From Cliona cf. orientalis (lineage: Eukaryota > Porifera > Demospongiae > Clionaida > Clionaidae), in contig OZ005706.1 in the NCBI GenBank assembly GCA_963930775.1, positions 5,390,546 through 5,454,545 of the forward strand: a DNA stretch of 64,000 nt. The letters are read 5' to 3'. Of the stretch, positions 1 through 47,206 are shown in pieces. The stretch's first letter is position 1. Every line of letters begins with the position of its first letter. Both the position numbers and the translations under genes were made by a program. The notes beneath the pieces are model-generated. The model was not told where the DNA came from, made no database searches, and was given only the letters and a program-made list of their open reading frames with translations.

Positions 1-883
1 CCTGCAAGCCTTCTGTACAGATTTTCTCTGACGTATAAAGGCAAAGAGACTAAAATAAGTCGACTATAAATCTTGTTGGTAGTTGCCTAGCAACCAAAGT
101 TTTTATAGCCAATTTGCCGGCTATGGGAAGGGGTTGGGTCATCATAAAGTAGGTCAACTACCAACAAATAGTTATCTGACAGTAATTGGGATGCATTCGA
201 CCATGCATCTCATGCACCCCAATTACCGTCAGATAACTATTACATATAGGTGCAATCAGCCATACGGTATTGTACATGTATACGTACATGTACATGTAGT
301 GTTCTAGCTGGTCATACATTGTCAACTGTATATGTATACATGTATGTATCTTCTACTATCAATCCTAAACATGAGGGGACAGATACTCCCATTGCCTGCT
401 CAGGCAAACCTAATCCAGCAAAGTCACGCAGCTTTCTCTGACTGCCACAGCAATGGCTTTGTCAGACATGAACATGTACCGTGCTGTTTGCACACTGAAG
501 GTCACAGTATCATGACCCTTACTAGCACCGATTCTAACTGACACTAAGAGGTGACATTAGATCTTCAAAATATATCAGGCACACACTAACATACGAAAGC
601 TATACTAAATATACATGTATATAATCACTCACATTGGAAGCATCGTCTAGGCAGCTATATAAAGAACTCAGAAGATACTAAAAAAACCACACACAAAAAT
701 TGTTTAACTGGTGGAATACGTAGGACTGAAGGAAGGATTTCAAGGAAGAACAAAAAAAGTTCAAAATGTACGTACATGTATAGTTAATGCTACTATATAT
801 GGGCCACTGTTTACAGCTAAATGATATCAATTATACTCGTCTAAAAAATTTTATTATTGTGCATACTATTACATGTAATACAG
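1..883. other. Intergenic DNA with palindromes; missing first exon of dermatopontin gene
   Basis: No convincing coding exon is visible. Two nested inverted repeats occupy about 74-241: an outer pair around 74-86 and 156-168, and a stronger hairpin at 168-241. Many ACATGTAC-type palindromes follow. The start codon and the first part of the signal peptide of the dermatopontin-like gene should lie here, because its first visible exon begins in mid-codon at 884, but no unique donor in the required phase could be picked. Confidence 0.5.
168..241. repeat. Perfect-arm hairpin
   Basis: The left arm (ATAGTTATCTGAC.GTAATTGGG) is matched by its reverse complement at the right end (CCCAATTAC.GTCAGATAACTAT), with a short central loop. 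It looks like a small foldback element or the remnant of a palindromic MITE. No gene is involved. Confidence 0.75.
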
Positions 884-1689
884 GATCTACGCTGGGTTCT
901 TGGTTCTGATTACTTTTTCAGTTGCCGCTCAGTCGGGAGCAAATGCTGGTCAGAGCATGATGATGCCTCTTATTAACAGGCTCCTGGCCAGACTACAAAA
1001 TCAAAATGGGTTTGATCAACCCCACCATGCTAGCTGCACTGGGGGAGACGCTATGTACAAAGTCTCGAGCGTGCATGACAATCACCACGAGGATCGAACC
1101 TGGACTTGGGAGTGCCATAGGATTCTTGAATCCGGATACCCAAAATGCCACACCACGGGATACGTGAACAATTTCGACCAACCGATGTCTTTCTCGTGCG
1201 GTCCGAATGAATTCATCACGGGCACGGACAGCTACCATAACAACCATTATGAGGATAGGAGGTGGAAGTTCACGTGTTGCTCCGCCCCCGATTATAAAGC
1301 AACTGGTTGCCGAATTACTGATTATGTAAATGAGTTTGATGGTCCACTCAAGTTTTCGACCGGTCCTGGGGAGGCTATAACTGGCGTATTCAGCTATCAC
1401 GACAATCACCGAGAGTAAGTTGAACTACTAGCAAGGCTGCATATACATGTAGCGGGGAGGGCAATATTATTATCCTTTTTTGCTGGATGTTTTCCGCCCT
1501 CCCCCCCCCCCCCCCCCCGAGAAATTTACGGTGTGGCTTTGACATGTGTTCGCCTGTCCGCCCCCCCACCACTTAAAAAATCCTAAGTACAATCCTGCTA
1601 TTAGTACTATGTATAACAACATAATACTACTACCATATTATAGGGATCGTCGCTTCAAATTTCAACACTGCAAGTTTGAAAGACATTGA
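884..1689 (+). CDS. Dermatopontin-like secreted matrix protein (5' end incomplete)
   Basis: Dermatopontins are small secreted extracellular-matrix proteins; in vertebrates they bind collagen and decorin. Two exons are visible: 884-1414 (preceded by CAG at 881-883, followed by GTAAGT) and 1644-1689 (preceded by TATAG), joined in phase to a TGA stop. The first bases encode a hydrophobic stretch (AGFLVLITFSVAAQS), which is a signal peptide lacking its initiator Met; that Met must sit on an upstream exon. The mature part has the family hallmark, repeated three times: DNHHEDRTWTWEC, NNHYEDRRWKFTCC and DNHREDRRFKF (the third split by the intron), with paired cysteines and aromatic residues. Visible length is about 190 residues, normal for the family. 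The only uncertainty is the first exon. Confidence 0.85.
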
Positions 1690-7754: not shown

Positions 7755-9134
<1,380 letters not shown>

Positions 9135-9628
9135 TTCTATGACATTGTGCTATTATGTTTCATTCCACTTCGATTCATGGCTCCCATTAATAATATTATT
9201 ATACTAATTAATTTGGCTGATTACCAAGCATTGAATTTCGATGATGGTGCAATAATGTAGCATTTTAGCTATCTATGAATCAAAAAGCATCCACACAATG
9301 TCCACAATAATAATAATACATGACAGTAATAATACTATAATAATAAAATTATTGTTATTAATACTAATTAAAAGTTAAGTTACTGTTAATTTTTGTTCAG
9401 TTTAGGTTCTGTTTTTTACTCAAACAACTATAATTATTATTATTATATTATACCAGGTTCTGTGTGAGTCTCACCTCATTTTTCTGCATGATATTGTGTG
9501 CAATCATTATGAGAGAATTATAATATAAAAACATACTAGAAATTAATGTATCCCATTGTAGCTTCATTATTGATTGGCAATAATAATTAATGATATACAA
9601 TGTCGTGCATGGTACACGTCATGAATGC

Positions 9629-10955
9629 TTACCAGTAACTGTTATTGGTCTCCGGATTATCACACAGTTTGCCTGAAAAAAAGTATATCCAAAATTAATA
9701 TTAAGCACTAATTATAAAGCCATACAATCATATGATGAGTAACTCACTCCCATATTGTTTCAGATCTCCAAGAGTATCAGCTTGTTTCACATATTGACTG
9801 CAAAATGCACCTATAATAAAATTTGATGATAATGTTAAGGGGGCCATCTATTCAGCGTAGTGGCATGATCACATAGCTGCTAGCTACATATACTTTTACC
9901 AATAAAATTAAGTGCAGACTCTAATGTGATATCCTGCCTGTTACCAAATCCTCCAGGAATGCGTATGCCTTGCATCTGAGGAAATCGCACAGTGAAACCC
10001 TGTTCTTTAGCACCATAACGTCTTTGAGCCCAGGGGTAAGAAATTGTGATACCCTGCTCGTTACCAAATCCTCCAGGAACACGTATGCCCTGCTCGTTAG
10101 CAAATCCTCCAGGAACACGTATGCCCTGCTTATTACCAAATCCTCCAGGAATGCGTATGCCCTGCATCTGAGGCAATCGCACAGTGAAACCCTGTTCTTT
10201 AGCACCATAACTTCTTTGAGCCCAGGGGTAAGAAATTGTGATACCCTGCTCGTCAACAAATCCTCCAGGAACACGTATGCCCTGCTTGTTACCAAATCCT
10301 CCAGGAATGCGTATGCCCTGCTCGTTACCAAATCCTCCAGGAATGCGTATGCCCTGCATCTGAGGTAAACCCTCTTCGTTAGCACTGCTGCTTTGCTGAT
10401 TCTGAGGATAGGTGAAGGTGATACCCTCTTTCTTGGCGATGAATGGAAAATCTATATCATAGGTGAAACGTTGACCTTTAGCTTGTTCATTGTACCAGCT
10501 CTCGGGATATGTGAAGGTGACACCCTCCTCCTTGGCAAACTGAGGAGCTTGCTGCTTGGCCCTACGCCATGAGATACTGCGGCCTTGCTTTTCAGCACTT
10601 TGCAGCTGCTTCCTGAGGTAAGCTATGTGGCAGTATGCATAATAATAATAATTTATTATTGTGCAGCGAATTAATATCTCTTAATAGCAGAATTAATAAC
10701 CGCAAAAATTAATGTTAGTAATACCAATAGTAACTAATAAACAGACTTACTGTTATAGGCATCAATTATTTGATCGACTGTAGCTGCATCAGCTTGTTTC
10801 TCGACATCTTTCGAAGCTTGCTGGTATAATGGATAGAGGGTATAATAACTTTGCTCGCTGATACCTTGTTGATTGCTAGCAGTTGGTCGTGCCATCACCA
10901 GGGAAAGCGATCCAAAAGCAACCAATACAACTATAAAAGTGAAGGTTGAAATCAT
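9629..10955 (-). CDS. Secreted protein with QGIR(V/I)PGGF 12-residue repeats, paralogue A
   Basis: The family is not recognised. Four exons in phase on the minus strand: 10751-10955, 9900-10622, 9748-9810, 9629-9672, giving 344 residues ending ..NNSYW. The start (ATG 10953-10955) opens a clear signal peptide (STFTFIVVLVAFGSLSLVMA). Then comes a charged alpha-helical stretch (QQASKDVEKQADAAT), two KEEGVTFTYP / KKEGITFTYP units, and a region with seven copies of QGIR(I/V)PGGF plus linker. These sit in a 64-residue (192 bp) higher-order repeat that also includes GITISYPWAQR and EQGFTVR. The two small last exons add a tail with two cysteines. Repetitive Gly/Pro/aromatic content suggests an extracellular structural or adhesive protein (inference). 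It is convergent with POLR2H and has a TATA box about 100 bp upstream of its ATG. Confidence 0.8.
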
Positions 10956-11052
10956 TTTTGAGAGCTCGAGTGTTTTCTTGGTATCTAAGAATCTGCACCA
11001 GCCACAACTGAATAATTGTAGCTATAGCCTCACCTAACTTGTTAGCTCACCT

Positions 11053-11060
11053 CTTTTATA
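11053..11060 (-). promoter_or_regulatory. TATA box of repeat-protein gene A
   Basis: TATAAAAG on the minus strand, 98-105 bp upstream of the start codon at 10955. The same octamer sits 96-103 bp upstream of the paralogue's start at 18365, so it is conserved between copies. Confidence 0.7.
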
Positions 11061-11498
11061 GACCTCTAAATCTTTCCCAAGTGATAAAATTTCATAATTA
11101 ATGCATAGAAACCTTCATACTGAAACATAAACATGTTTAAGAAGCACAATAATATACAATAATATTATTATGATTATGATCACATGCAATAATTGGATAA
11201 GCAAAAGTCACAATGGTATTACGATTTTTGTACTTATCATTAAGTGGGGTGGGATGGGGGATGGGGGGAGGGGGTGGGGCTCGCTTCACTTATTCCGATC
11301 CCTGATTTTTCATCATAATTATTATACTTGAGTGCAGAATCCTCACTGCTACATGCATGCATGCATCACTCATGTGTGTGTATAGCAATGCTGCATGGCT
11401 CACTGTGTATGCTTGTTCAATATCAGGAACATGCGGCTAGCTACCTTGCACCTGGACATGGTTAGCTATGTGGTACAGTTCAAGTCTCATGATATAGG

Positions 11499-12169
11499 CA
11501 GGGGCGTAGCCAGGATTTTCTGAGGGGTTTTCCTAAGAGTTGCGCGCGAAGCGTGCGCGAAAAATTTAACGACCACGCCCACTTTTCGGCCACGCCCTCC
11601 AATTGACGATCGCAATTTCAGCTAGGATTTGCTCGCTTCTCGAGATTTTGGCAGAGAAAAGCACAAAAAGAGGAGATCTAGGCAGTGGCGGATCCAGGAT
11701 TTCTAGAAGGGGGGTTCTGATATACTTTTGCGCGCGAAGCGCGCGCGAATTTTTGGAAGCCACGCCCACTTTCGGGCGAAACCACGCCCATTTCGCTCGT
11801 TCTTGAGACAAACTACCAGCCCTACCAGTCCAATCGATCTGTTTTCGAACAAATTTCTTCTAAAGCATTCATAAGGTGAGCCATAGCAGCAGTTTTCTAG
11901 TTCTGTAGCCAGAAAGGGGGGTTCCATTTAGCCTAACATCAGTATACTTCTTAGTGCTAGGTGCAGCCCAAAGGGGGGTTCCTGTGCACCCCTGGATCCC
12001 CCTCTGGATCCGCCACTGCTAGGCTAAGTTTCAGGAGACTTTAGTGCCTGCATATTGAATCTGGAAACCAAGGGGGTTTCCTGATAGCCAAATCATACTA
12101 AGATAATGCTGAATCTGACTGCCAGGGGGGGTTTCCGGGCAACAAGGAAACAACTAAGCTACGCCCCTG
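11499..12169. mobile_element. MITE with 5-bp TSD, interrupted by a second MITE
   Basis: Inverted ends CAGGGGCGTAGCCAGG .. CTACGCCCCTG are flanked on both sides by ATAGG, a 5-bp target duplication. Subtracting the nested element at 11683-12018 and its 5-bp duplication leaves 330 bp, exactly the length of the uninterrupted sister copy at 51911-52240. CA-starting ends with 5-bp duplications recall hAT-type elements of the 5-bp group (inference). No transposase is encoded. Confidence 0.88.
11683..12018. mobile_element. Nested MITE (CAGTGGCGGATCC ends)
   Basis: Inverted ends CAGTGGCGGATCCAGG .. GGATCCGCCACTG are flanked by CTAGG on both sides. The sister copy of the host element at 52 kb has a single CTAGG at this point, which is the empty site. 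It contains a GCGCGCGAAGCGCGCGCGAA core and GCCACGCCCAC motifs also found in the other MITEs here. Confidence 0.9.
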
Positions 12170-12277
12170 ATAGGAGTAGCTAGGGGGAAGTTAAGGCACC
12201 TGGCTATATAATAATTATGTCACTATACAAACTGAAAGGAAAAATTGAACCTCTCACACCAAGATTATATTGTATAG

Positions 12278-12690
12278 CTAATAAAGAGAGAGGGAGAGTA
12301 TCCTACTTACAACACTTACTTCATGAGGGTCATGACCTTTGTAATAATATTCACAAGCTTGAGGACTCAGTTTGTAGCCTCGTTCCCAGGCCACTCCCAC
12401 GTTTTCAATGTTACACATGCATGCCCACGTTTTCAATGTTACACATGCATGTGTAACATTGAAAACGTGGGAGTGGCCTGGGAACGAGGCTAAGCCGTTT
12501 GTGGGCATGTAGCTAAACCTCATGTTTTAATGCAGGATGATGCAGCTGCTATGTGATGTTGTAGAATGACCTGTGAAACCACTTTGTATGTGAATATCAT
12601 TACAAAGTTCATGATCCTCATAAAGGGTTGTAACACATACCCATAGTGGAGTAGGATACTCTCCCCTTCTCTATTATAATTATAGCTACT
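12278..12690. mobile_element. Palindromic MITE with GAGAGTATCCTACT ends
   Basis: The left arm (AGAGAGGGAGAGTATCCTACTT ..TGACCTTTGTAATAATATTCAC) and right arm (GTGAATATCATTACAAAG..GAGTAGGATACTCTCC) are inverted repeats of about 90 bp. The middle carries the foldback at 12375-12492. Related ends occur at 40706-40910, about 48670 and 52970-53280. Confidence 0.65.
12375..12492. repeat. Foldback element with TAGCCTCGTTCCCAGGCC arms
   Basis: A near-perfect palindrome: the arm TAGCCTCGTTCCCAGGCC continues through CACTCCCACGTTTTCAATG and returns as its exact reverse complement. The centre holds a short direct duplication of the inner arm. The outer motif TAGCCTCGT.CCCA recurs at 57873. Confidence 0.9.
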
Positions 12691-12806
12691 CCTGCTCACA
12701 CTAGTCTGCCATGTGGGTGTATAGCTAATAAGCCAGATAGTTCCTGATATTAATTTGGGCTTCAAATAGCTAATATGTAATCACATAAACTTAAAGAGTG
12801 TCCTAC

Positions 12807-12851
12807 CTAAGAGATTGAAGATTTGGGATTCGAATGGCACCAATCTCTTAG
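12807..12851. repeat. Single cruciform unit (CTAAGAGATTG palindrome)
   Basis: One copy of the palindromic unit found as an expanded array in the paralogous position of copy B (20346-20878): CTAAGAGATTG, then an inner GGGATTCGAAT, then CAATCTCTTAG. Confidence 0.75.
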
Positions 12852-13050
12852 CATGGTGGTGCTCTTTGCACATGCAATTGAACGGCTAATGTGCAATCTA
12901 GAGTGACCTTCTGGCCACCATAGTAGCTACGACTACCTAATTAAACTGAATTAATATGCACTTGAAAGCCACTGCCTATTTACACTGTCACTGCATTGAC
13001 AACTGACCAGCAAAGCATAGAATGGTAATCAGTCAAGTAGCTGAGGTAAG

Positions 13051-13292
13051 CACTGGCGTAAGAAGCAGGGGGGCTGGGGGACTGTAGTCCCCCCCCCCCC
13101 ACCCCATCTTGTGAGCCAAGTGGGCCTTTAACATCTTCAGATTTGTGATGTAAAGTCTACTTTACAGCCAAATTAGCATAATAATGGGCATGGTTTGAAG
13201 GCATATTGTGTGATCCAAAAAATTTTTTTTTGTGCTTTGCACGCAATTTTATTTACAGCCCCCCTGTTCAAAAATATCTTCTTACGCCACTG
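13051..13292. mobile_element. MITE with GTAAG 5-bp TSD
   Basis: Inverted ends CACTGGCGTAAGAAG .. CTTCTTACGCCACTG (one mismatch) are flanked by GTAAG on both sides. The paralogous site in copy B, near 21056-21064, reads GAGGTAAGAGCC without any insertion. Confidence 0.92.
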
Positions 13293-13807
13293 GTAAGAGC
13301 CATGTAAACACAGACGGCACTCTACTAGCTACACCACCGGTCATGCATGCAGGACTTAACATGACCACAATTCTATTATGTCTCGAATGTGTACTTTCTC
13401 TCAGATGATCCTTATACCATTTAGCATGGGAGGGTTGGGATGGACCATAGATGGACGGACAGACGGACAAAAATCGCAAACAATTGCAGTAGTTCAAAAC
13501 AATGTCATATCCAAATACTTATATTAGTAAAATACGGTCTATCTAGATAGATAAAGAACAGCTGTGGCATGTTTTTAATGCATGCCTCAGCTGTTCTTTT
13601 AATTTTTATCTTTTGGCAAGATACAAACAGATATTCATATCATTGTACGTATACGTACCACATGAATGCCATTTAAGTAAAGGTAACTAATGCCTTTGTT
13701 GTTGTGAAATCATTGAAAGGAATAAATAATTGACAAATATTAATGAATAATTGAGAAGTTTGTTGTATAAAAAACAAAATTTAAATTAATGGTAATAATT
13801 AGGGATG

Positions 13808-15865
13808 CTAGTGGCACAAATAGCACTGATAGAGGTCAGATCTATACAAGGTAGGATTTGATCCTATGCTGTTATTGGTTTTGAATTCTAAGATGTCACT
13901 AGGTTTTTTTATGTTATATTCTGTCTCACATAAATCTATCCACCCTCCAAACAGATCTGCTCCAGCTATTCCCGCTGTATTGTTTTCAAATTCAACATTG
14001 TTACAGTAATATCCTTTTTTATTATAAATATGAAGGAAACATTTCTGTTTTCTTTTCATCCAAAGAGCATTTTCCACATATATTGCACCTCCATATGTGT
14101 CTGCAACATTTCCCATAAACATTACATGTGTATTGTTTTTTAAATTGATCACGGCACCTTCCTTCAGACTAATTGCTCCACCATTCTCAGCTGAATTATC
14201 AATAAAATTCACATTACCTTCAAAGTATAACTCTGAGCTGTATGCAGATATAGCTCCACCCTGCCTTCCACTATTGTTGACAAACATGATCTCACCTTCA
14301 AACCATGCCTGGCTGGAATCACTGACTTTAAATACGCTTTCATATTTTTGTGCAATATTATCAGAAATCAGAACAAAATCCTCAAACTTGATTGCCCCAC
14401 TTAGTAATGAAATGGACCCTTTGTTTGATAAGAAATATGTTTTACCAGTAAGTGTCAAGTAACTACTTGGAATATTAACTGAAAGTATGTTGTTGTGACT
14501 GTTAACGATGAGCAAGTTTGATAATCTCAAATGGTCATTAGTTTTACTGTTAATTACAGAAAGAGCTGTCGGGCACCTGCTTTTATTTATCACGATATTA
14601 TTCATCTCAAAAGTAAACCATGAATATTCAATTGATAAATCTGAATCTCTTACAATCACGCAGCTTCCATTAAAGTATCCATTTCGTAATACAATATACA
14701 CACGTTTTTTCCGTGAATAAATATCAATAAGCTGAGTACCAGGCCATGTCAGCGACGTCAGATCGCAATCGGGGTCATATAGGAATGAGTAGTCATTACA
14801 TCGAATGGGTAAAGTATATGACCATGGCCCACTTGGGTTTGATAAGGTATTCTCAAGTCTGATATCATATTTTATAACCATACCAGGTGGGGCTATCGTT
14901 GTATCTGTCTGGATCGATGATATATTGGTTATTAGTATGTTCATATCAATACTCTTACTATATTTTGGTCGACTTCGTAGTGCCATATAGAGATTTCCAT
15001 GTGTACCTTCATTATTCGAAAGTGTAATATTTGTCAAGCTAATGTTGTGCGTATCCCCATTCAGATCCACAAATAAATTGAGCCCTGATGCAAACTCAAA
15101 ATTATACGACTTTATTTGTCCAAAGTTTATCTGTGAGTATAACATATTAAAGGTAGTGTTTGTGGTATCTAACAGCATAATATAGTTTATGCAATTTATC
15201 TGATTGTACGCCAAAATCGTCTTTGATATCTCTAAACCATTGTTATCAATACTGAGAATACCAACTCCTCTTGAATAAAATATAGCAGTCTGATGTATGG
15301 TGACTTTTTTGTTTTTAAAAGTAGAAAGGAAAACATGGCAGGCAGGATGTTCTTTGCTCACATTTGCATCACAAGAGCTTAAATTATACTCTAAGTATTT
15401 CCCAACCTGTTTGTTGTAAGCTGTTAGAATTGTATTAGTACGTCCTTCCAACTGTAGATGTGCAGAGCAATTATAAATCTGAATATTAGAGATTTCTATC
15501 CAAAGGCTTTTAATAATTGTGAGTCCCCAAGTAGCGCCAGGTTGGCAAATGATGGTCACATTCGGTGACGAGCCCTTGAGGGTAAAATTTACAATTTTAA
15601 TAAGAACCAACTGACCCACCTTTTCAGTGATGTTGTACACACCTGGTAGCAGCTCCAATGTTGTATAGGAGTCAAAAAAGTAGGATGAGTTACCTAGAAC
15701 ATCTTCAAGATGATAGCAGAGATCCACAGGGCAACTGTCTTCAGGTGTGACATAGATGGTTCTCCATTGAATTTCTGAATCAGTGCTATTTTGACTGAAT
15801 GAACTGATGAGAAATGAAGTGGTTAGCAGGAATATAGCAATCAGAAATTGACCAGCACTGTACAT
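13808..15865 (-). CDS. Secreted Pmp-repeat / beta-helix protein, single exon
   Basis: One uninterrupted 685-residue frame with an N-terminal signal peptide (AGQFLIAIFLLTTSFLISSF). It is rich in Asn/Ser/Ile and N-glycosylation sites. The C-terminal third carries chlamydial polymorphic-membrane-protein (Pmp) type repeats: GGAISAYSSELYF, GGAISLKEGAVINL and GGAIYVENA, alternating with F.NN / FIDNS motifs, as in right-handed beta-helices. A conserved-looking GADLFGGWIDLC block precedes the stop. From general knowledge, such repeats occur in large sponge protein families. Function is unknown; a cell-surface or secreted adhesive role is inferred. There is no transmembrane segment after the repeats, so the protein may be truncated or simply secreted. 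A rearranged fragment of its 3' end lies at 16320-16560. Confidence 0.8.
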   Translation of the reverse strand: MYSAGQFLIAIFLLTTSFLISSFSQNSTDSEIQWRTIYVTPEDSCPVDLCYHLEDVLGNSSYFFDSYTTLELLPGVYNITEKVGQLVLIKIVNFTLKGSSPNVTIICQPGATWGLTIIKSLWIEISNIQIYNCSAHLQLEGRTNTILTAYNKQVGKYLEYNLSSCDANVSKEHPACHVFLSTFKNKKVTIHQTAIFYSRGVGILSIDNNGLEISKTILAYNQINCINYIMLLDTTNTTFNMLYSQINFGQIKSYNFEFASGLNLFVDLNGDTHNISLTNITLSNNEGTHGNLYMALRSRPKYSKSIDMNILITNISSIQTDTTIAPPGMVIKYDIRLENTLSNPSGPWSYTLPIRCNDYSFLYDPDCDLTSLTWPGTQLIDIYSRKKRVYIVLRNGYFNGSCVIVRDSDLSIEYSWFTFEMNNIVINKSRCPTALSVINSKTNDHLRLSNLLIVNSHNNILSVNIPSSYLTLTGKTYFLSNKGSISLLSGAIKFEDFVLISDNIAQKYESVFKVSDSSQAWFEGEIMFVNNSGRQGGAISAYSSELYFEGNVNFIDNSAENGGAISLKEGAVINLKNNTHVMFMGNVADTYGGAIYVENALWMKRKQKCFLHIYNKKGYYCNNVEFENNTAGIAGADLFGGWIDLCETEYNIKKPSDILEFKTNNSIGSNPTLYRSDLYQCYLCH

Positions 15866-15994
15866 GGCTGTCTTAAACTGACAGGTTAGCTAGCTTTTCA
15901 CGCCTTTTCTTACATATGTAGCTATAATCCTTCTGATTTTGGGAATGTATTCCTATTTTGATCGCTTCGAGCAGCTACACACAATTTGATATCA

Positions 15995-16062
15995 ATAACA
16001 ACTTGAATCCCTTTGATATCAATAACAACTTGATATCAATAACAACTTGAATCCCATGGCAA
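15995..16062. repeat. Short tandem TTGATATCAATAACAAC repeat
   Basis: Three direct copies of a 20-25 bp unit lie in the 5' flank of the Pmp-like gene. No promoter function can be assigned. Confidence 0.7.
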
Positions 16063-16319
16063 CACCATGCATGCAAGGCTGAAAAGGAATATTACTGTTA
16101 CAGTAGCTAATAATAACAAGTTTAATCCCGTGACAACACCGAAGTTAACCGAGACTCAAAAGGAGTAATACAGCCAATAGTACAAAAATAATATCAAAGC
16201 ATAGCTACAATAACGATAATAACATTATAGTAGTTGTGGCAAACATGTGTTGTAGTAACATAATACAGCTATGCTGTATAATGGCCCTTTTTTATTGCAA
16301 ATGCTATAGGGGAATATAT

Positions 16320-16560
16320 TTCAGTCTTGCTGCATCGTCCACATAAATAGTACTTCCATATGTGTCCGCATGCAACATTAATTTTTATACATAAACATTG
16401 CAAATGTTGAGTTTGAAAACAACACAGCAGGAATATCTGGAGCAAATCTGTTTGGAGGGTGGATAGATTTATGTGAGACAGAATATATATTATGACACCA
16501 AACCTATAGCAATTACTTAAGCTTTAAAACAGACAACAGCATAGGATCACATCCTACCAG
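16320..16560. pseudogene. Rearranged fragments of the Pmp-like gene
   Basis: Bases about 16330-16405 resemble the 3' part of the gene (about 14075-14130) in the same orientation. Bases about 16400-16560 match its final 170 bp (GGAGCAAATCTGTTTGGAGG, then TGGATAGATTTATGTGAGAC) in inverted orientation, with a stop and length changes. It is a non-coding relic. The switch of strand within one short fragment implies a foldback-type rearrangement. Confidence 0.8.
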
Positions 16561-17142
16561 AGAGTGTATATAGCTATGTGTGCTAATTCAACACTAAATG
16601 AGGATAAAGCTGAAGCAAATATTGCAGTATTTCCAGGACAAAGCTTTGAGAAGCTGTAGCAGTGGGCCAAAGATTTGGGATGATATGAGCATTTATCAGG
16701 GCAGAAACAAATTAAATGCCATTGATCGGTTACGAAAAGTTCAAGATACTGAAAATTAAATTTTACTAAGCTAAAGTTTATCGTTCGATCATCTAATAAA
16801 AAAACTGAGACAATGTTACTGAGCACAGATGGACAAATCAGGCCTAAAAAATTTAATGGATCAAATATTCCTGATAAATTCCTTCAATTCAAGGTGTTAA
16901 TTATCTTGCTAGAGTGTATCCACTAGGTTTTGAATTTGATAGCAGACAAAATATTTGCTCATGTCAACCATACCTGTCATGAATACTTATGGAGTGCAGT
17001 GCAATTTTATTACATACAGTCAACAGGTATGCCCATATATCTTAAGTGGCCTAGGCTAAGAGCACTGTACATCATAATTATTATAGTAATTTACCCTATC
17101 CATTCCTTCAATGCATAATTCATGCATGCATGCGTGTACTAG

Positions 17143-17286
17143 GTCAGCATAATTATTATTATTATGTCTCATTTGGTGGTCTGCTGATGCAGCTCCAGTC
17201 CAGGGTGATGCTAACAACCTCCTCGGCTTCGATCGTCATGGAGATGGATGTTTACTTACTCATAAAGAAACTAGCATAATTCTAGT
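17143..17286 (+). pseudogene. Decayed duplicate of POLR2H last exon
   Basis: The sequence follows POLR2H exon 4 (GTCTCATTTGGTGGTCTGCT, GGTGATGCTAACAACCTCC) but has a 12-13 bp AT insertion near its start, a 5-bp duplication around CAGTCCAGG, a 4-bp insertion (GATC) and a changed stop region. Upstream exons are absent, because the duplication boundary falls in POLR2H intron 3. It is not functional. Confidence 0.93.
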
Positions 17287-17530
17287 TTCATGTGCAATGT
17301 TTTCATGGCTACTATAGTAATAATAATTTGGCTGAATACCAAAAAATTATTCACAAGGCTTAGCATTAAATGTCAATAATGTAACATTAAATTTTTAGCA
17401 AATCAAAAAGCATCCACACAATGTCCATAGTGCTAGTATAATAATATACATGCCAATAATATAAAGGTAATAGTGTTATTCACACTAGAAGAGCTATGAA
17501 ATAACTGTTATCAATACTACAGTGAAGTTA

Positions 17531-18365
17531 CTATTCCATTCCCATTGCCTGCTGGTTACCAAATCCTCCAGGAACACGTATGCCCTGCTTGTTACTAAAT
17601 CCTCCAGGAACACGAATGCCCTGCTCGTTGACAAATCCTCCAGGAACACGTATGCCCTGTTTATTGACAAATCCTCCAGGAACACGTATGCCCTGCTGGT
17701 TACCAAATCCTCCAGGAACACGTATGCCCTGCTCGTTGACAAATCCTCCAGGAACACGTATGCCCTGCTCGTTGACAAATCCTCCAGGAACACGTATGCC
17801 CTGCTGGTTACCAAATCCTCCAGGAACACGTATGCCCTGCTCGTTGACAAATCCTCCAGGAATACGTATGCCCTGCTGGTTACCAAATCCTCCAGGAACA
17901 CGTATGCCCTGCTCACCGACAAATCCTCCATGAACACGTATGCCCTGCTGGTTACCAAATCCTCCAGGAACACGTATGCCCTGCTCGCCGACAAATCCTC
18001 CAGGAACACGTATGCCCTGCTGGTTAACAAATCCTCCAGGAACACGTATGCCCTGCATCTGAGGCAGACCCTCTTTATTAGCACTGCTGTGCCATGAGAT
18101 ACGGTGGCCTTGCTTTTCAGCACTTTGCAGCTGCTCCCTGAGGTAAGCTATGTGGCAGTATGCATAATGAATTAATAGCAGAATATTGTAGTAACTAATA
18201 AGCAGACTTACCTTTGTAGGCATCGATTATTTGATCGACTGTAGCTGCTTCAGCTTGTTCCTCGATATCTTTCGAAGCTTGATGGCTAGCAGCTGAGCGT
18301 GCTGTCACCAAGGACAGTGATCCAAAAGCAATCAGTACAATTGCAGCAGTGAAGGTTGAAGTCAT
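17531..18365 (-). CDS. Secreted QGIRVPGGF-repeat protein, paralogue B
   Basis: Paralogue of the gene at 9629-10955. Exon 1 is 18212-18365 (ATG 18363-18365; signal peptide STFTAAIVLIAFGSLSLVTA). Exon 2 is 17531-18147, joined in phase 1, with TAG at 17531-17533: 256 residues. After a shared linker (YLREQLQSAEKQG) there are 14 back-to-back 12-residue units QGIRVPGGF(V/G)(N/G)(E/Q/K), encoded by 36-bp DNA repeats. The TFTYP units, the 64-residue higher-order organisation and the two cysteine-bearing C-terminal exons of paralogue A are missing; the frame ends ..QQAMGME. The homogeneous repeat array suggests recent expansion. The opposite strand and other frames are also open because the unit is a multiple of three; those are shadows. 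Confidence 0.78.
17550..18056. repeat. 36-bp coding minisatellite (14 units)
   Basis: Fourteen tandem 36-bp units with the constant core AATCCTCCAGGAACACGTAT, differing mainly in the two or three codons between cores. They encode the 12-residue protein repeat of the overlapping gene. Confidence 0.95.
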
Positions 18366-18460: not shown

Positions 18461-18468
18461 CTTTTATA
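18461..18468 (-). promoter_or_regulatory. TATA box of repeat-protein gene B
   Basis: TATAAAAG on the minus strand, 96-103 bp upstream of the ATG, matching the position of the same octamer in paralogue A. Confidence 0.7.
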
Positions 18469-33244: not shown

Positions 33245-35078
33245 GATATTGATATTGCTGAGCGAATAGCTCTTTAAGCTGTATCATATGTTGGATGTAC
33301 CATTTCTATTGTTTGCCTCATAGCAACTTCGTGTGGCTTAACTATGATCAGTAAGTGAAAATAACATCATACCCCATGAAAGCAGCTTTTACTCAATAAA
33401 TAGGAGGAGATTACCTGATTCCAAGAGGGTAAAATCTGTTCAAAACTTTGTACACTTGAACTTTTCTCTTTCCCTTTTGCTTGCCCTCACTGTATTTGTT
33501 ATAGGAGTTGAGACAGCTACTGGAAGTGTAGTATGTTTTATATAATGTATATCACACAATATCATTCATTTTAAATCTATAACATGCAGTTTGGTTGTGT
33601 ACTGGTAGCCTCTCTTCTCCACTACTTGTTCCTTTGTGCATTTTGTTGGATGTTGTGTGAAGGAATAATGCTTTATCTTCTTCTCCGTGTGGTCTTTAGT
33701 GAAATATCCAAGAAATGGTGGCCCTTTGTGCTCATTGGCTACTGTAAGTTGAGGCTTAGTACAGCTACTATGGACTCTAAGCTAGGCTATAATTGTATAA
33801 TTGTGCTTATGAAGAACTATGCATACATTACGTACAGTGACTCCTCTGCCAATTGTTGCCATTTCAGTTGGCATAAGATACGAGTACTATGGTGTCAGAG
33901 ATTCCTGTGAAAACTTGCTCTAGTAGGTTCAATAATATTATTAATGATTGTAGCACACTGCCCAGCAGACTGCATTTAATTTAGCAGCTATAGATCTGTA
34001 TAATGTCCAATAATCAGTTACAAAAATACACTACAGCTGCTGGATGTCAGTGGATAAAGGCACTATATTTGGATTTGTGGCACCCATGCTTGTTATTATT
34101 TTGGTGAGTGTATAAACACAAAACATATCTTTCATAGAGAGATAGCATACACATAGATCAATGCCGTGTTCATGGCTCTGGCTCTGCAAACTCTGTGGAG
34201 AGTGAAAAAAAGCCAGCAGCGGAATAAGAATGAAAGAAAATTCCAAGATTCACAAAGACTAGGAAGGTACATCAATGCTGTGATGATTATTCCCCCACTA
34301 CCCATCATACACCACCACCACATTTCCCTCCATAATTGCAGAGCTCTTCTGCTAGCATCCCTCATTCTGCTTCCCCTCCTTGGACTGACATGGGCATTTG
34401 GCACTCTCATAGTCAATGCAAATTCAACAGCAGTCGCATGGCTGTTTACTATCTTTAATTCCCTCCAAGTAAGCTCTACATCCAGTTGCAATTGGATCCT
34501 TGGTATAATTATTATCATTATTACACAGGGCATGTTCATCTTTTTCTTTCATGTGGTTCGAAATGACAAGGTATTAATTATTAAAAAAAAGCATAATACA
34601 ATTTAATATTACTATTGACTAATGTCCAGATATGGAACAGAATCAGCCCAAAACTTCACTCGTTGCGGACTAAGTTGACCTCAACATCAGGCCATGGCAC
34701 ACGATTGGTATGAACACTTTACTGATTATCAAGATAGTGGTATGTTTATTTTTCGACATGCATGATTGTATAGTCATCAGATAGAGTGGGCACACTCAGT
34801 TCTACTAATACTACTAAATCGTCTGGTACCGGTATGTTATGGGGCATGATTAACAACTATGTATTGTCAATTAATACATGTATATACTGTGATCCTCAGC
34901 AGATTCTAAAGAAAAATATGAGCTAGCGCTGTCACTATCAACCATGGACTCTGCAAGCACCAGTACCATTGATCCAAAGCCTGATCATGATCCAGTGTCG
35001 GCATATGCCCATAGTAGCAAACAGCATGAAACCGAACCTGAAACTAAAACTGACCTGGATCTGGAAAGAAAGAATTAG
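33245..35078 (+). pseudogene. Adhesion GPCR seven-TM region and tail, with stop and frame breaks
   Basis: Continuation of the gene starting at 22746. Exons: 33245-33350 (TM1), about 33404-33530 (TM2), 33590-33743 (TM3), 33838-33906 (TM4/5), 34037-34103, 34157-34266, 34342-34468 (TM6), 34529-34570 (TM7), 34630-34707, 34774-34831, 34903-35078 (tail, TAG at 35076). Family signatures: YVGCTISIVCLIA, HLNFSLSLLLALTVF, FCWMLCEGIMLYLLL, LLPLLGLTWAFG and FIFFFHVVRNDK. TAA at 33275-33277 interrupts TM1 in frame. The TM1-TM2 join and the 33906-34037 join are each one base out of phase with every visible splice site. The rest is well preserved. Either a recent pseudogene, a receptor truncated to its GAIN ectodomain, or indel errors in assembly. 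Confidence 0.8.
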
Positions 35079-45007: not shown

Positions 45008-47206
45008 ATGATGAAGTTTTATGCAGAGCAGATGTTGGCAGTCCCATTACTTGTAATCTGCATCAGTTTTGCAGGTGCTCAGTCTACTGATGCAGACACT
45101 GATACACCAGGTACTTGTCAACTCAACGCATATCCCGTCTACGATGTTCGAAACTGTCACGAACAGCAACGGTATGGAACAGACGATGCCGTACGACGAT
45201 TAGCTAGAAGTTCTACCCGGGCTTGGTTTCGACAATCTCCGGAATCTAGACATGGGACAAGTTCATCTGTACAACTACTCAACATGCAAAGTGACCGAGG
45301 ATGGACAGTACATGATTCCTGACAGTGTATTCGTTGTTCCACTAAAAGAAGGACACTACAAATCCTATGCAGACTACTTTGACCACTGGGATAATTACAC
45401 ATCCATTACCAGTTCAAAAGTTAACGTTGGCTATGGAGGATCAGTGTTTAGCTTGTTCAAGATCAGTGGGTCTTTTTCAAGGGAAAAGCAATCTGTGAGG
45501 AATACCAAGTAACTACAATTCAAAAACTACCCGAGTCAGTGTTCGAAATAGAGTGTACGCAGTTCTTTTAGATTCCTCAGCTGAACTACACCCCAGGTTT
45601 AAATCAAAAGTATATGAAATTGCATCCAGTGTGCAGAACAATGAAACAGCATTAGTGCAGTATCTCTCTGAGCTGTTGGTACGAGATTATGGCACACACT
45701 ACATAACATCGGTAGAGGCCGGAGCTGTTCTGGTTAAACTTGACTCCATCTCAGAAACCTACACAAGAAATGTTGAGAAAACTACTGTGACTTCTTCTGC
45801 GAACGCCGCCTTTCCTTTCTTCAGTGATATTCTTAGTACAAGAAACACTACTCAACAGAACATTGATGCCTATGAAAGTAACACTAAGAGATCTGAACTT
45901 TACACAATAGGAGGAGCTTCATTTTCCCCTAGTTTAAACCTGACACAATGGGTTATAGAGGTACCTAACAGGTTGCAATATTGGCCATAATTGACCGCAC
46001 AGCAGACCCCATTCACTTTGCTATAACCCCTACACGCTTTCCGGAGCTACCCATACTCACAGTAAGAGCGGTATCGGACTCAGTTCTGGCAGCTACTGAC
46101 AGGTATTATCGTCTGAACACAAAGCCTGGTTGCGTGGATCCCAAGGCACAAAACTTTGACTTTCAAGCCAACTTTGGAGACAGCAGTTACTGTAACACAT
46201 CTGTTTCCCACATCGACAGGGCGTTTGGTGGGCTCTATCAGACTTGCCGTCAAGTTGGAAGAGAAGATCTATGTGCTGATCGAATGATTGCTCAAGTCAA
46301 TCCACAAACTGGAGACTACAGTTGTCCAGATGGATATACAGCTATTTCAATCTACACTGGTACGGAATCATATGTTGGTGACTACAGAAGTTATTATCGA
46401 ACCTGTACTGGCTGGCTTTTCAGGAGCTGTAGCACCAGATCTCGTACTTCAACCGAGGTATCGACTGCCTCCTATGAGACATTTTGGTGCGTAGTTATCA
46501 ATACTCCACAGCAGAACTTGGATCTGCGCATGCTGTCAGCTTTGCAGGTTTTCACAGCTGCAGAATTGGTAATCCTCTGTCAGTTCCAGCAAGCGTATCC
46601 TCATCAAGGTTTCCGAATGCGACTGACTGGCCCCACAACTGCCCACGTGGCTACTCCCAGCATCTTGTTTCCATTGAAAATAGTTGTGAGATCAAAGTCT
46701 GCCTCGAGAAAGGAGCGTTTCTGTCCAAAAGTCTACTTCCCCCAATCCTTCCTCCTTTCCAAGCACAACCTCCTTTCGTACCTTACATAATAAATCAACT
46801 CGCAGTTCTGGGCTCAGATGGCAGTGTCTTAGTGAGGAACACTGCAGGTCAGTGGGAAAGGTTTTCACCCGACAGCGATGAAGCCTCCGTATTTCACGAA
46901 CTATTGCGAAGTAACAGTACAACAGTGAATCCATCAACCGCTCCTCCCACTGGTACTGACCTTCCTGATAATGGTACTAATCTCTCACATTCGAGCACTA
47001 CTCCTCTTGGTGCTGAGGGTGAGAGCAGTCACTCTAACACTGAGTTTTCAATCCCAATAATAGCATCACTCACTCTGGCAACCATTGCAGTTGTTGCGTC
47101 ATTGATTGTTATAATTGCATTTGTTCTGGTCATACGCCACATATGCCGCACAAAAAGGAAATATGAGAATGGTGACGACATTGCTCTGAATAATAAGCAT
47201 ATATAA
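45008..47206 (+). pseudogene. MPEG1: Perforin-2 / MPEG1-like MACPF protein, frame-broken
   Basis: MPEG1 is a membrane-anchored pore-forming immune effector of animals, reported in sponges as well. The gene reads as one exon: signal peptide (MLAVPLLVICISFAGA) after ATG 45008; N-terminal region; MACPF domain with the family signature YGTHYITSVEAG (about 45698-45733); MPEG1-specific P2 region with Cys pairs (GCVDPKAQNF, GFHSCRIGNP); Ser/Thr linker; one TM helix (about 47056-47128) and a short basic tail to the stop at 47204-47206. The reading frame changes about five times: near 45201-45207 (pattern of a 2-nt loss), 45487-45497, the A run at 45522-45526, 45972-45981 and 46480-46520. Coding similarity continues across each break. 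It is either a young pseudogene or an allele with assembly indels. Confidence 0.85.

What the first reader, a model, noticed from the sequence alone, without database searches (positions are those of the whole stretch)
9629..18365. Undescribed-looking family of secreted proteins built from a 12-residue QGIR(V/I)PGGF repeat
Seen: two paralogues with signal peptide, shared linker and tandem QGIR(V/I)PGGF units. A has 7 units in a 64-residue higher-order repeat with GITISYPWAQR and EQGFTVR modules and a Cys tail. B has 14 uninterrupted units and has lost the tail exons. I cannot name a known family. Inference: a fast-evolving extracellular structural or adhesive material with length variation by 36-bp units.
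Basis: partly seen in the sequence, partly recalled or inferred. Interest (0 to 1): 0.75.

Follow-up and report, generated by a model that had tools for sequence, protein, structure and literature searches.

The report
Paired secreted repeat-protein genes, sponge
A boring sponge carries two neighbouring genes for apparently secreted proteins made of near-identical 12-amino-acid repeats that match no family in the libraries searched; the likeliest reading is a precursor from which many copies of a short peptide are cut, but a building-material protein is nearly as likely and no product has been seen.

Summary
Two minus-strand genes, A (10955-9629, four predicted exons, 344 aa) and B (18365-17531, two, 256 aa), encode proteins with an apparent signal peptide, a shared leader and 7 and 14 QGIR(V/I)PGGF units. 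Genome searches give only these two genes as clear matches: one tandem duplication including promoter and 3' flank. Pfam, PDB sequences (A only), bacterial and viral collections and a full-text motif search gave nothing. Across 21 units the nine-residue core is nearly fixed (5 of 27 DNA columns vary) and the three-residue spacer is not (9 of 9). Gene A carries further modules: (E/Q)G, three to five residues, Pro. I favour a secreted multi-copy peptide precursor (0.45), working like sponge macrocyclic-peptide or cnidarian neuropeptide precursors. It fails the latter's C-terminal Gly-basic site (0 of 21), so it is not filed there. A structural repeat protein is the main rival (0.35). AlphaFold gave no confident fold. 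No transcript or peptide evidence was reachable.

The parts
9629..10955 (-). Gene A, predicted four-exon gene, 344 aa, apparently secreted repeat protein
   Evidence: Open frame, GT-AG introns placed by eye, no internal stop, length divisible by 3
10751..10955 (-). A exon 1: signal peptide (by eye) and start of leader
   Evidence: homologous to B exon 1
9900..10622 (-). A exon 2: rest of leader, early EG(V/I)TFTYP modules, 7 QGIR(V/I)PGGF units in two 64-aa higher-order repeats plus one
9933..10365 (-). 192-bp higher-order tandem repeat, 2.3 copies
   Evidence: TRF score 782
9748..9810 (-). A exon 3: tail (63 nt, between two phase-1 introns), first Cys
   Evidence: no counterpart aligned at B
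9629..9672 (-). A exon 4: end of tail with the second Cys and stop
17531..18365 (-). Gene B, predicted two-exon gene, 256 aa, apparently secreted repeat protein
18212..18365 (-). B exon 1: signal peptide (by eye) and leader
17531..18147 (-). B exon 2: leader end and 14 units
17548..18056 (-). 36-bp tandem array, 14.1 copies
   Evidence: TRF score 794
11055..11060 (-). TATA-box-like TATAAA about 100 bp upstream of the A start codon, in sequence shared with B
   Evidence: consensus match only
18463..18468 (-). TATA-box-like TATAAA about 100 bp upstream of the B start codon
   Evidence: consensus match only
9024..9304 (-). 3' flank of A shared in part with the 3' flank of B (tandem duplication)
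   Evidence: matches only at A itself and beside B
17163..17427 (-). 3' flank of B, homologous in part to the 3' flank of A

Best explanation
A and B are tandem-duplicate genes of a sponge (almost certainly Cliona cf. orientalis, chromosome 18). They encode secreted multi-copy peptide precursors: signal peptide, leader, then repeats of a short recognition element ending in (E/Q)G followed by a Pro-containing core. In B the core is one peptide, QGIRVPGGF, in 14 near-identical copies; in A it is the same peptide in 7 copies plus several other modules (GVTFTYP, GITFTYP, GITISYPWAQR, GFTVR(L/F)P). Shown: open gene models, apparent signal peptide, repeats, core/spacer contrast, two genes only as clear matches. 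Inferred: that the precursor is cut in the secretory pathway at the variable three-residue spacers, where Asn or Asp stands in 19 of 21, and that the freed peptides (pyroglutamate-capped, or closed to a ring) act as signals or defence compounds outside the cell.
For: Leader and apparent signal peptide are conserved between A and B (53 invariant columns of 94); A and B give the clear matches to them in the genome (5 of 6 rows, the sixth at E 0.41; 2 of 2). Core of 9 residues: 5 of 27 DNA columns vary; spacer of 3 residues: 9 of 9; Fisher p = 2e-5 for the 21 pattern-selected units. For the 14 B units cut out by position alone, without a pattern: 3 of 27 against 8 of 9, p = 4e-5; for the 7 A units 3 of 27 against 5 of 9, p = 0.013. 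Of 9 hand-picked module sequences (8 from A, 1 from B), one G and one P are the only invariant columns. The degenerate pattern for (E/Q)G(I/V)T-x-x-YP hits 4 places in 216.8 Mb, all in A, against 1 for the reversed control. All 14 B units start with Gln, as do the EQGRFGKR/DQGRFGKR cnidarian and DQPPRWGR/NQPPRWGR placozoan peptides after their first residue (PMC9545775, passages). The order signal sequence, N-terminal extension, repeats of recognition plus core is that of plant ArbA2 (PMC12186524, passages). Sponge hosts are reported to cut proline-rich macrocycles from ribosomal precursors (PMC11382151, passages). A has dibasic sites at residues 88 and 132, before or between early modules. 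AlphaFold sees no stable fold in either exon 2 (single sequence, weak evidence).
Against: B has no dibasic site at all. A has four (residues 72, 88, 132, 269): three lie before the first unit and one inside the GITISYPWAQRRYG module between units 6 and 7, which its sister module (QRSYG) lacks. Directly after GGF none of 21 units has GR, GK or a dibasic; 5 of 21 spacers hold a single K or R. The residue before Gln is not uniform (E 8, Q 5, M 4, K 4 of 21). The core is also depleted in third-position changes (pooled 3 of 9 against 3 of 3; B 1 of 9 against 3 of 3), so part of its constancy is homogenisation between copies, not selection. In gene A the four QGITISYP/QGFTVR modules are left out of the unit counts; with them the core would not look fixed. 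No transcript, peptide or relative in another species was seen. The PRMP precursor paper could not be read.
Confidence: 0.45

Rival explanations
1. Secreted structural or adhesive protein that stays whole: the 12-residue unit is two short beta strands (QGIRV, F(V/G)) joined by a PGG turn and an N/D/G turn, a chain of hairpins or an elastin-like coil that gives a resilient matrix; unit number sets length.
For: G 29%, P 8% in the B array. Spacer position 11 is only N, D or G (18, 1, 2 of 21), residues that favour turns (recalled). No convertase-type site between the units of B, one in A. The low-confidence AlphaFold models show short strands. A has 17 Tyr, which could serve cross-linking.
Against: Mean pLDDT 35 and 41, pTM 0.20: no confident solenoid or sheet (no alignment, so weak). 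Both proteins are short for a fibre; B has no Cys and no Tyr in its array. A beta scaffold would be expected to hold alternate positions rather than nine in a row (inference).
Confidence: 0.35
2. Secreted protein that acts whole without processing, such as a basic host-defence or ligand-binding repeat protein.
For: Mature products are basic (computed pI 9.1 and 10.4); MACPF, Ig-like and dermatopontin exons lie in the same window (10 chosen open frames scanned), which is only neighbourhood.
Against: No Pfam domain above cut-off; no Cys in B.
Confidence: 0.1
3. Expanded coding minisatellite in a decaying or unexpressed gene pair without a present function.
For: dN/dS 0.51 with an interval reaching 1.31; between the two 64-aa repeats of A 8 non-synonymous and 2 synonymous changes, ratio 1.23; no expression data.
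Against: 21 units and the predicted splice sites intact in both genes; no frameshift or stop in the models; TATA-bearing promoter shared.
Confidence: 0.1

Closest known systems
Sponge proline-rich macrocyclic peptide (PRMP) precursors (Lin et al. 2024, doi 10.1073/pnas.2314383121; paper not held; content recalled except for the statement in PMC11382151)
   Same: Sponge-encoded ribosomal precursor of short Pro-containing peptides; signal peptide and many recognition-core repeats (recalled)
   Different: Here one dominant core is repeated unchanged while the spacer varies; one Pro per module; no proof of cyclisation; sequences not compared
Cnidarian and placozoan neuropeptide preprohormones (Antho-RFamide, PRWamide)
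   Same: Signal sequence, 14-19 copies, each peptide begins with Gln after an acidic residue or Asn (PMC9545775, passages)
   Different: No C-terminal Gly-basic cleavage and amidation site after the core in any of 21 units; Gln follows Glu in 8 of 21 only
Plant split-burpitide precursor ArbA2
   Same: Signal sequence, N-terminal extension, repeats of recognition sequence plus core (PMC12186524, passages)
   Different: Plant, side-chain cross-linked FLWGY cores; no sequence relation tested
Elastin-like and silk-like PGG repeat proteins (recalled)
   Same: PGG turn between short hydrophobic stretches
   Different: Charged and Gln-rich units, short chain; no Pfam match above cut-off for A or B, no PDB sequence match better than E 1.3 for A (B not searched)

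Membership tests
Cnidarian/placozoan-type neuropeptide preprohormone | Signal peptide and many near-identical copies of a short sequence | tested here: met
   Copies. The signal peptide was judged by eye, no predictor was available
Cnidarian/placozoan-type neuropeptide preprohormone | N-terminal Gln preceded by an acidic residue or Asn | tested here: inconclusive
   Gln is part of the search pattern for the 21 units, but holds in 14 of 14 B units cut by position; preceding Glu 8 of 21, otherwise Q 5, M 4, K 4
Cnidarian/placozoan-type neuropeptide preprohormone | C-terminal Gly followed by basic residue(s) after each copy | tested here: not met
   0 of 21; a single K or R elsewhere in the spacer in 5 of 21
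Sponge PRMP precursor | Sponge-encoded, secreted, repeated recognition-core units with proline in the core | tested here: inconclusive
   Layout present: Pro in 20 of 21 units and in all 9 hand-picked modules aligned; which part is recognition and which core is inference
Sponge PRMP precursor | Homology of leader or recognition sequence to published precursors | not tested
   Paper not held
Sponge PRMP precursor | Head-to-tail cyclic product | not testable with these tools
   Needs mass spectrometry
Disulfide-stabilised sponge peptides (barrettides, passages; stryphnines, listing) | Core held by two or more disulfides | tested here: not met
   No Cys in B, two in A, both in the tail
Any Pfam family | Match above curated cut-off | tested here: not met
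   Best hits 13.3 and 11.7 bits, below cut-offs of 27 and 21

The most novel reading that the evidence does not exclude
The pair encodes a host-made multicore peptide system of a clionaid sponge. One gene delivers a single peptide in 14 copies; its twin delivers that peptide plus a small set of different Pro-containing peptides. Both would be released at Asn-bearing spacers by a non-convertase (asparaginyl-type) protease and possibly closed into rings, an animal counterpart of plant and fungal multicore peptides outside the standard neuropeptide processing code.
Probability: 0.15. Interest if true: 0.7.

Novelty: new member of a known kind. Interest (0 to 1): 0.38.

Why it matters
Sponges sit near the base of the animal tree, and peptides made by the sponge itself rather than by its bacteria are a recent discovery (PMC11382151, passages). 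A two-gene, one-locus family with a fixed core and free spacer gives an exact mass to look for, so the choice between peptide precursor and material protein can be settled by a peptidomics run. If it is a material protein it is a compact new repeat design; if it is a precursor it shows animal peptide processing without the usual basic cleavage sites.

Tried and rejected
Pfam, two proteins: nothing above cut-off. PDB by sequence, A only: best E 1.3; B was not searched. Bacterial/archaeal genomes with A exon 2: 23 stretches matched a pattern, 0 confirmed. Viral contigs with B exon 2: none. So nothing supports a horizontal-transfer or symbiont reading; the gene models have introns and sit in a 7.76-Mb contig. 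Full text for the motif strings: 0 papers. Ten paper searches in all; of the other nine I saw listings (one search listed none), and no listed title names this repeat; the library lacks most subscription papers. Structure: two single-sequence AlphaFold jobs, pLDDT 35 and 41, too poor for a fold search, which I therefore did not run. Of 17 rows of the repeat query in the genome, 4 are A and B in frame, 4 are the opposite strand of A or B (E 3e-7, 0.003, 4.0, 9.9), and 9 lie elsewhere at E 0.02-4.9; those 9 were not examined. The leader query has one further row on C13 at E 0.41, also not examined. Legumain-type protease search: one partial match over cut-off with two stops inside the hit stretch, searched without regard to introns; it neither supports nor excludes an Asn-cutting route. 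Classical convertase processing was considered and rejected as a route to the repeated core, for lack of sites beside it. I considered reading the core/spacer contrast as pure selection and rejected that, because third positions of the core are also quiet.
Full report
WHERE IT IS. The window is C18:5390546-5454545 of a genome of 216,785,154 bases in 149 contigs. The four contig lengths that I asked for (C1 37,495,003; C2 14,801,553; C12 9,358,149; C18 7,761,131) all equal the published lengths of chromosomes 1, 2, 12 and 18 of the sponge Cliona cf. orientalis, assembly odCliOrie1.1 (37.5, 14.8, 9.36 and 7.76 Mb; PMC12639293, passages seen). Total length (217.17 Mb) and scaffold number (307) differ from the held copy; I take this to be small scaffolds left out (inference).

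OBSERVATION. Both genes lie on the minus strand. A: exons 10955-10751, 10622-9900, 9810-9748, 9672-9629; 344 aa. B: exons 18365-18212, 18147-17531; 256 aa. The four introns are GT-AG and phase 1, placed by eye. A has 7 and B 14 units matching QG(I/V)R(V/I)(P/H)GGF plus three residues. TRF finds the 192-bp repeat of A (2.3 copies, score 782) and the 36-bp repeat of B (14.1 copies, score 794). The signal peptides (MISTFTFIVVLVAFGSLSLVMA, MTSTFTAAIVLIAFGSLSLVTA) are judged by eye.

HOW MANY. Three protein searches and one DNA search of the genome give only A and B as clear matches. The repeat (17 rows): 4 rows in frame in A and B at E 1.7e-50 to 2.3e-18; 4 on their opposite strand; 9 elsewhere at E 0.02-4.9, not examined. 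The leader (6 rows): 5 in A and B, one on C13 at E 0.41, not examined. The A tail and modules (10 rows): all in A and B. Exon 1 plus promoter as DNA: 2 places, A and B, the latter at 65% identity. The searches ignore introns and score only the best candidates. The pattern for (E/Q)G(I/V)T-x-x-YP has 4 matches in the genome, all in A, and 1 for the reversed control. The 3' flank of A matches elsewhere only beside B (3 rows). With the shared 5' flank (TATAAA about 100 bp before both ATGs) this is one tandem duplication. Between the last unit and the shared 3' flank, A has the tail exons and B has nothing alignable to them. Whether B lost them or A gained them is open.

ANATOMY. Leader: 53 invariant of 94 columns between A and B; dS 0.24, dN 0.12, ratio 0.51 (bootstrap 0.23-1.31) over 82 codons. 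Units: 21 in all, found with a pattern that itself fixes Q, G, R, G, G and F; in B the 14 units are contiguous and the result is the same when they are cut by position alone, while in A the pattern leaves out two QGITISYPWAQR and two QGFTVR modules. By residue: Q, G, I, R, (I/V), (P/H), G, G, F; position 10 is A/G/S/V, 11 is D/G/N, 12 is E/K/Q/R. By DNA column 5 of 27 core and 9 of 9 spacer columns vary (Fisher p = 2.1e-5); B alone 3 of 27 and 8 of 9 (p = 4.4e-5), A alone 3 of 27 and 5 of 9 (p = 0.013). Core divergence is 0.053 within A, 0.016 within B and 0.053 between; spacer divergence 0.217, 0.311 and 0.303. The contrast is not selection alone: third positions vary in 3 of 9 core and 3 of 3 spacer codons (read from the codon table), so exchange between copies contributes. 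The two 64-aa repeats of A differ by 8 non-synonymous and 2 synonymous changes. The other modules of A align with the units at one Gly and one Pro, with five residues between them, or three in the QGIR units (9 hand-picked rows), so A reads as a chain of (E/Q)G-started, Pro-containing modules of several kinds.

WHAT IT IS NOT. No Pfam match above cut-off, no PDB relative for A, no bacterial or viral relative found, no paper with the motif strings. It is not a disulfide-stabilised peptide precursor: no Cys in B. It is not a standard neuropeptide precursor: none of 21 units has Gly-basic or dibasic residues directly after the core, though 5 of 21 spacers hold one K or R and A has four dibasic sites elsewhere, one of them between units 6 and 7.

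MECHANISM. I commit to a secreted multi-copy peptide precursor (0.45). Shown: apparent secretory leader, copies, near-fixed core, variable spacer, several modules in the twin gene. Inferred: cleavage in the spacer and activity of the freed peptide. Asn or Asp stands in the spacer in 19 of 21 units, which would suit an asparaginyl-type protease; one partial legumain-family match exists in the genome, which proves nothing. Cnidarian and placozoan precursors also start each peptide with Gln after acidic residues or Asn (PMC9545775, passages). Here Glu precedes the Gln in 8 of 21 and Q, M or K in 13 of 21, a partial fit. Plant ArbA2 has the same overall order of parts (PMC12186524, passages). Sponge hosts are stated to excise proline-rich macrocycles from ribosomal precursors (PMC11382151, passages). 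The primary paper, Lin et al. 2024, was not held; what I say of its repeats is recalled.

RIVALS. A structural repeat protein (0.35) explains the Gly/Pro content, the turn-favouring N/D/G position and the lack of convertase sites beside the cores. It is not helped by AlphaFold (mean pLDDT 35.4 and 41.4, pTM 0.20), though single-sequence models of repeats are weak evidence either way. An intact bioactive protein (0.1) and a drifting minisatellite gene pair (0.1) remain.

VERDICT. The family is new to the libraries that I could search, with clear matches at one locus here. Its kind, a short secreted tandem-repeat protein, is known in animals (recalled). Interest is moderate because the function is open but easily tested.

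Noticed in passing
window 13808-15889 (-): Single open frame of 693 aa with a signal-like start (by eye) and a Chlam_PMP-type repeat match (25.4 bits, cut-off 20.6), lying between A and B.
   Followed up: partly
window 16403-16558: Inverted partial copy of the 3' end of that gene (85 nt at 94% plus 43 nt at 81% complementarity), about 1 kb downstream of the stop of B.
   Followed up: partly
window 12270-12690: Nested foldback element with perfect 49-nt arms; its right half matches dispersed copies across many contigs (709 candidates at first look, 40 scored), a MITE-like repeat.
   Followed up: partly
window 33575-34606 (+): Exons of a secretin/adhesion-family GPCR (7tm_2, two open frames).
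   Followed up: no
window 45499-45990 (+): MACPF/perforin-domain exon.
   Followed up: no
window 879-1418 (+): Dermatopontin-domain open frame (DERM, 141.6 bits).
   Followed up: no
window 7856-8065: Dinucleotide CT array of 105 copies inside a long open frame.
   Followed up: no
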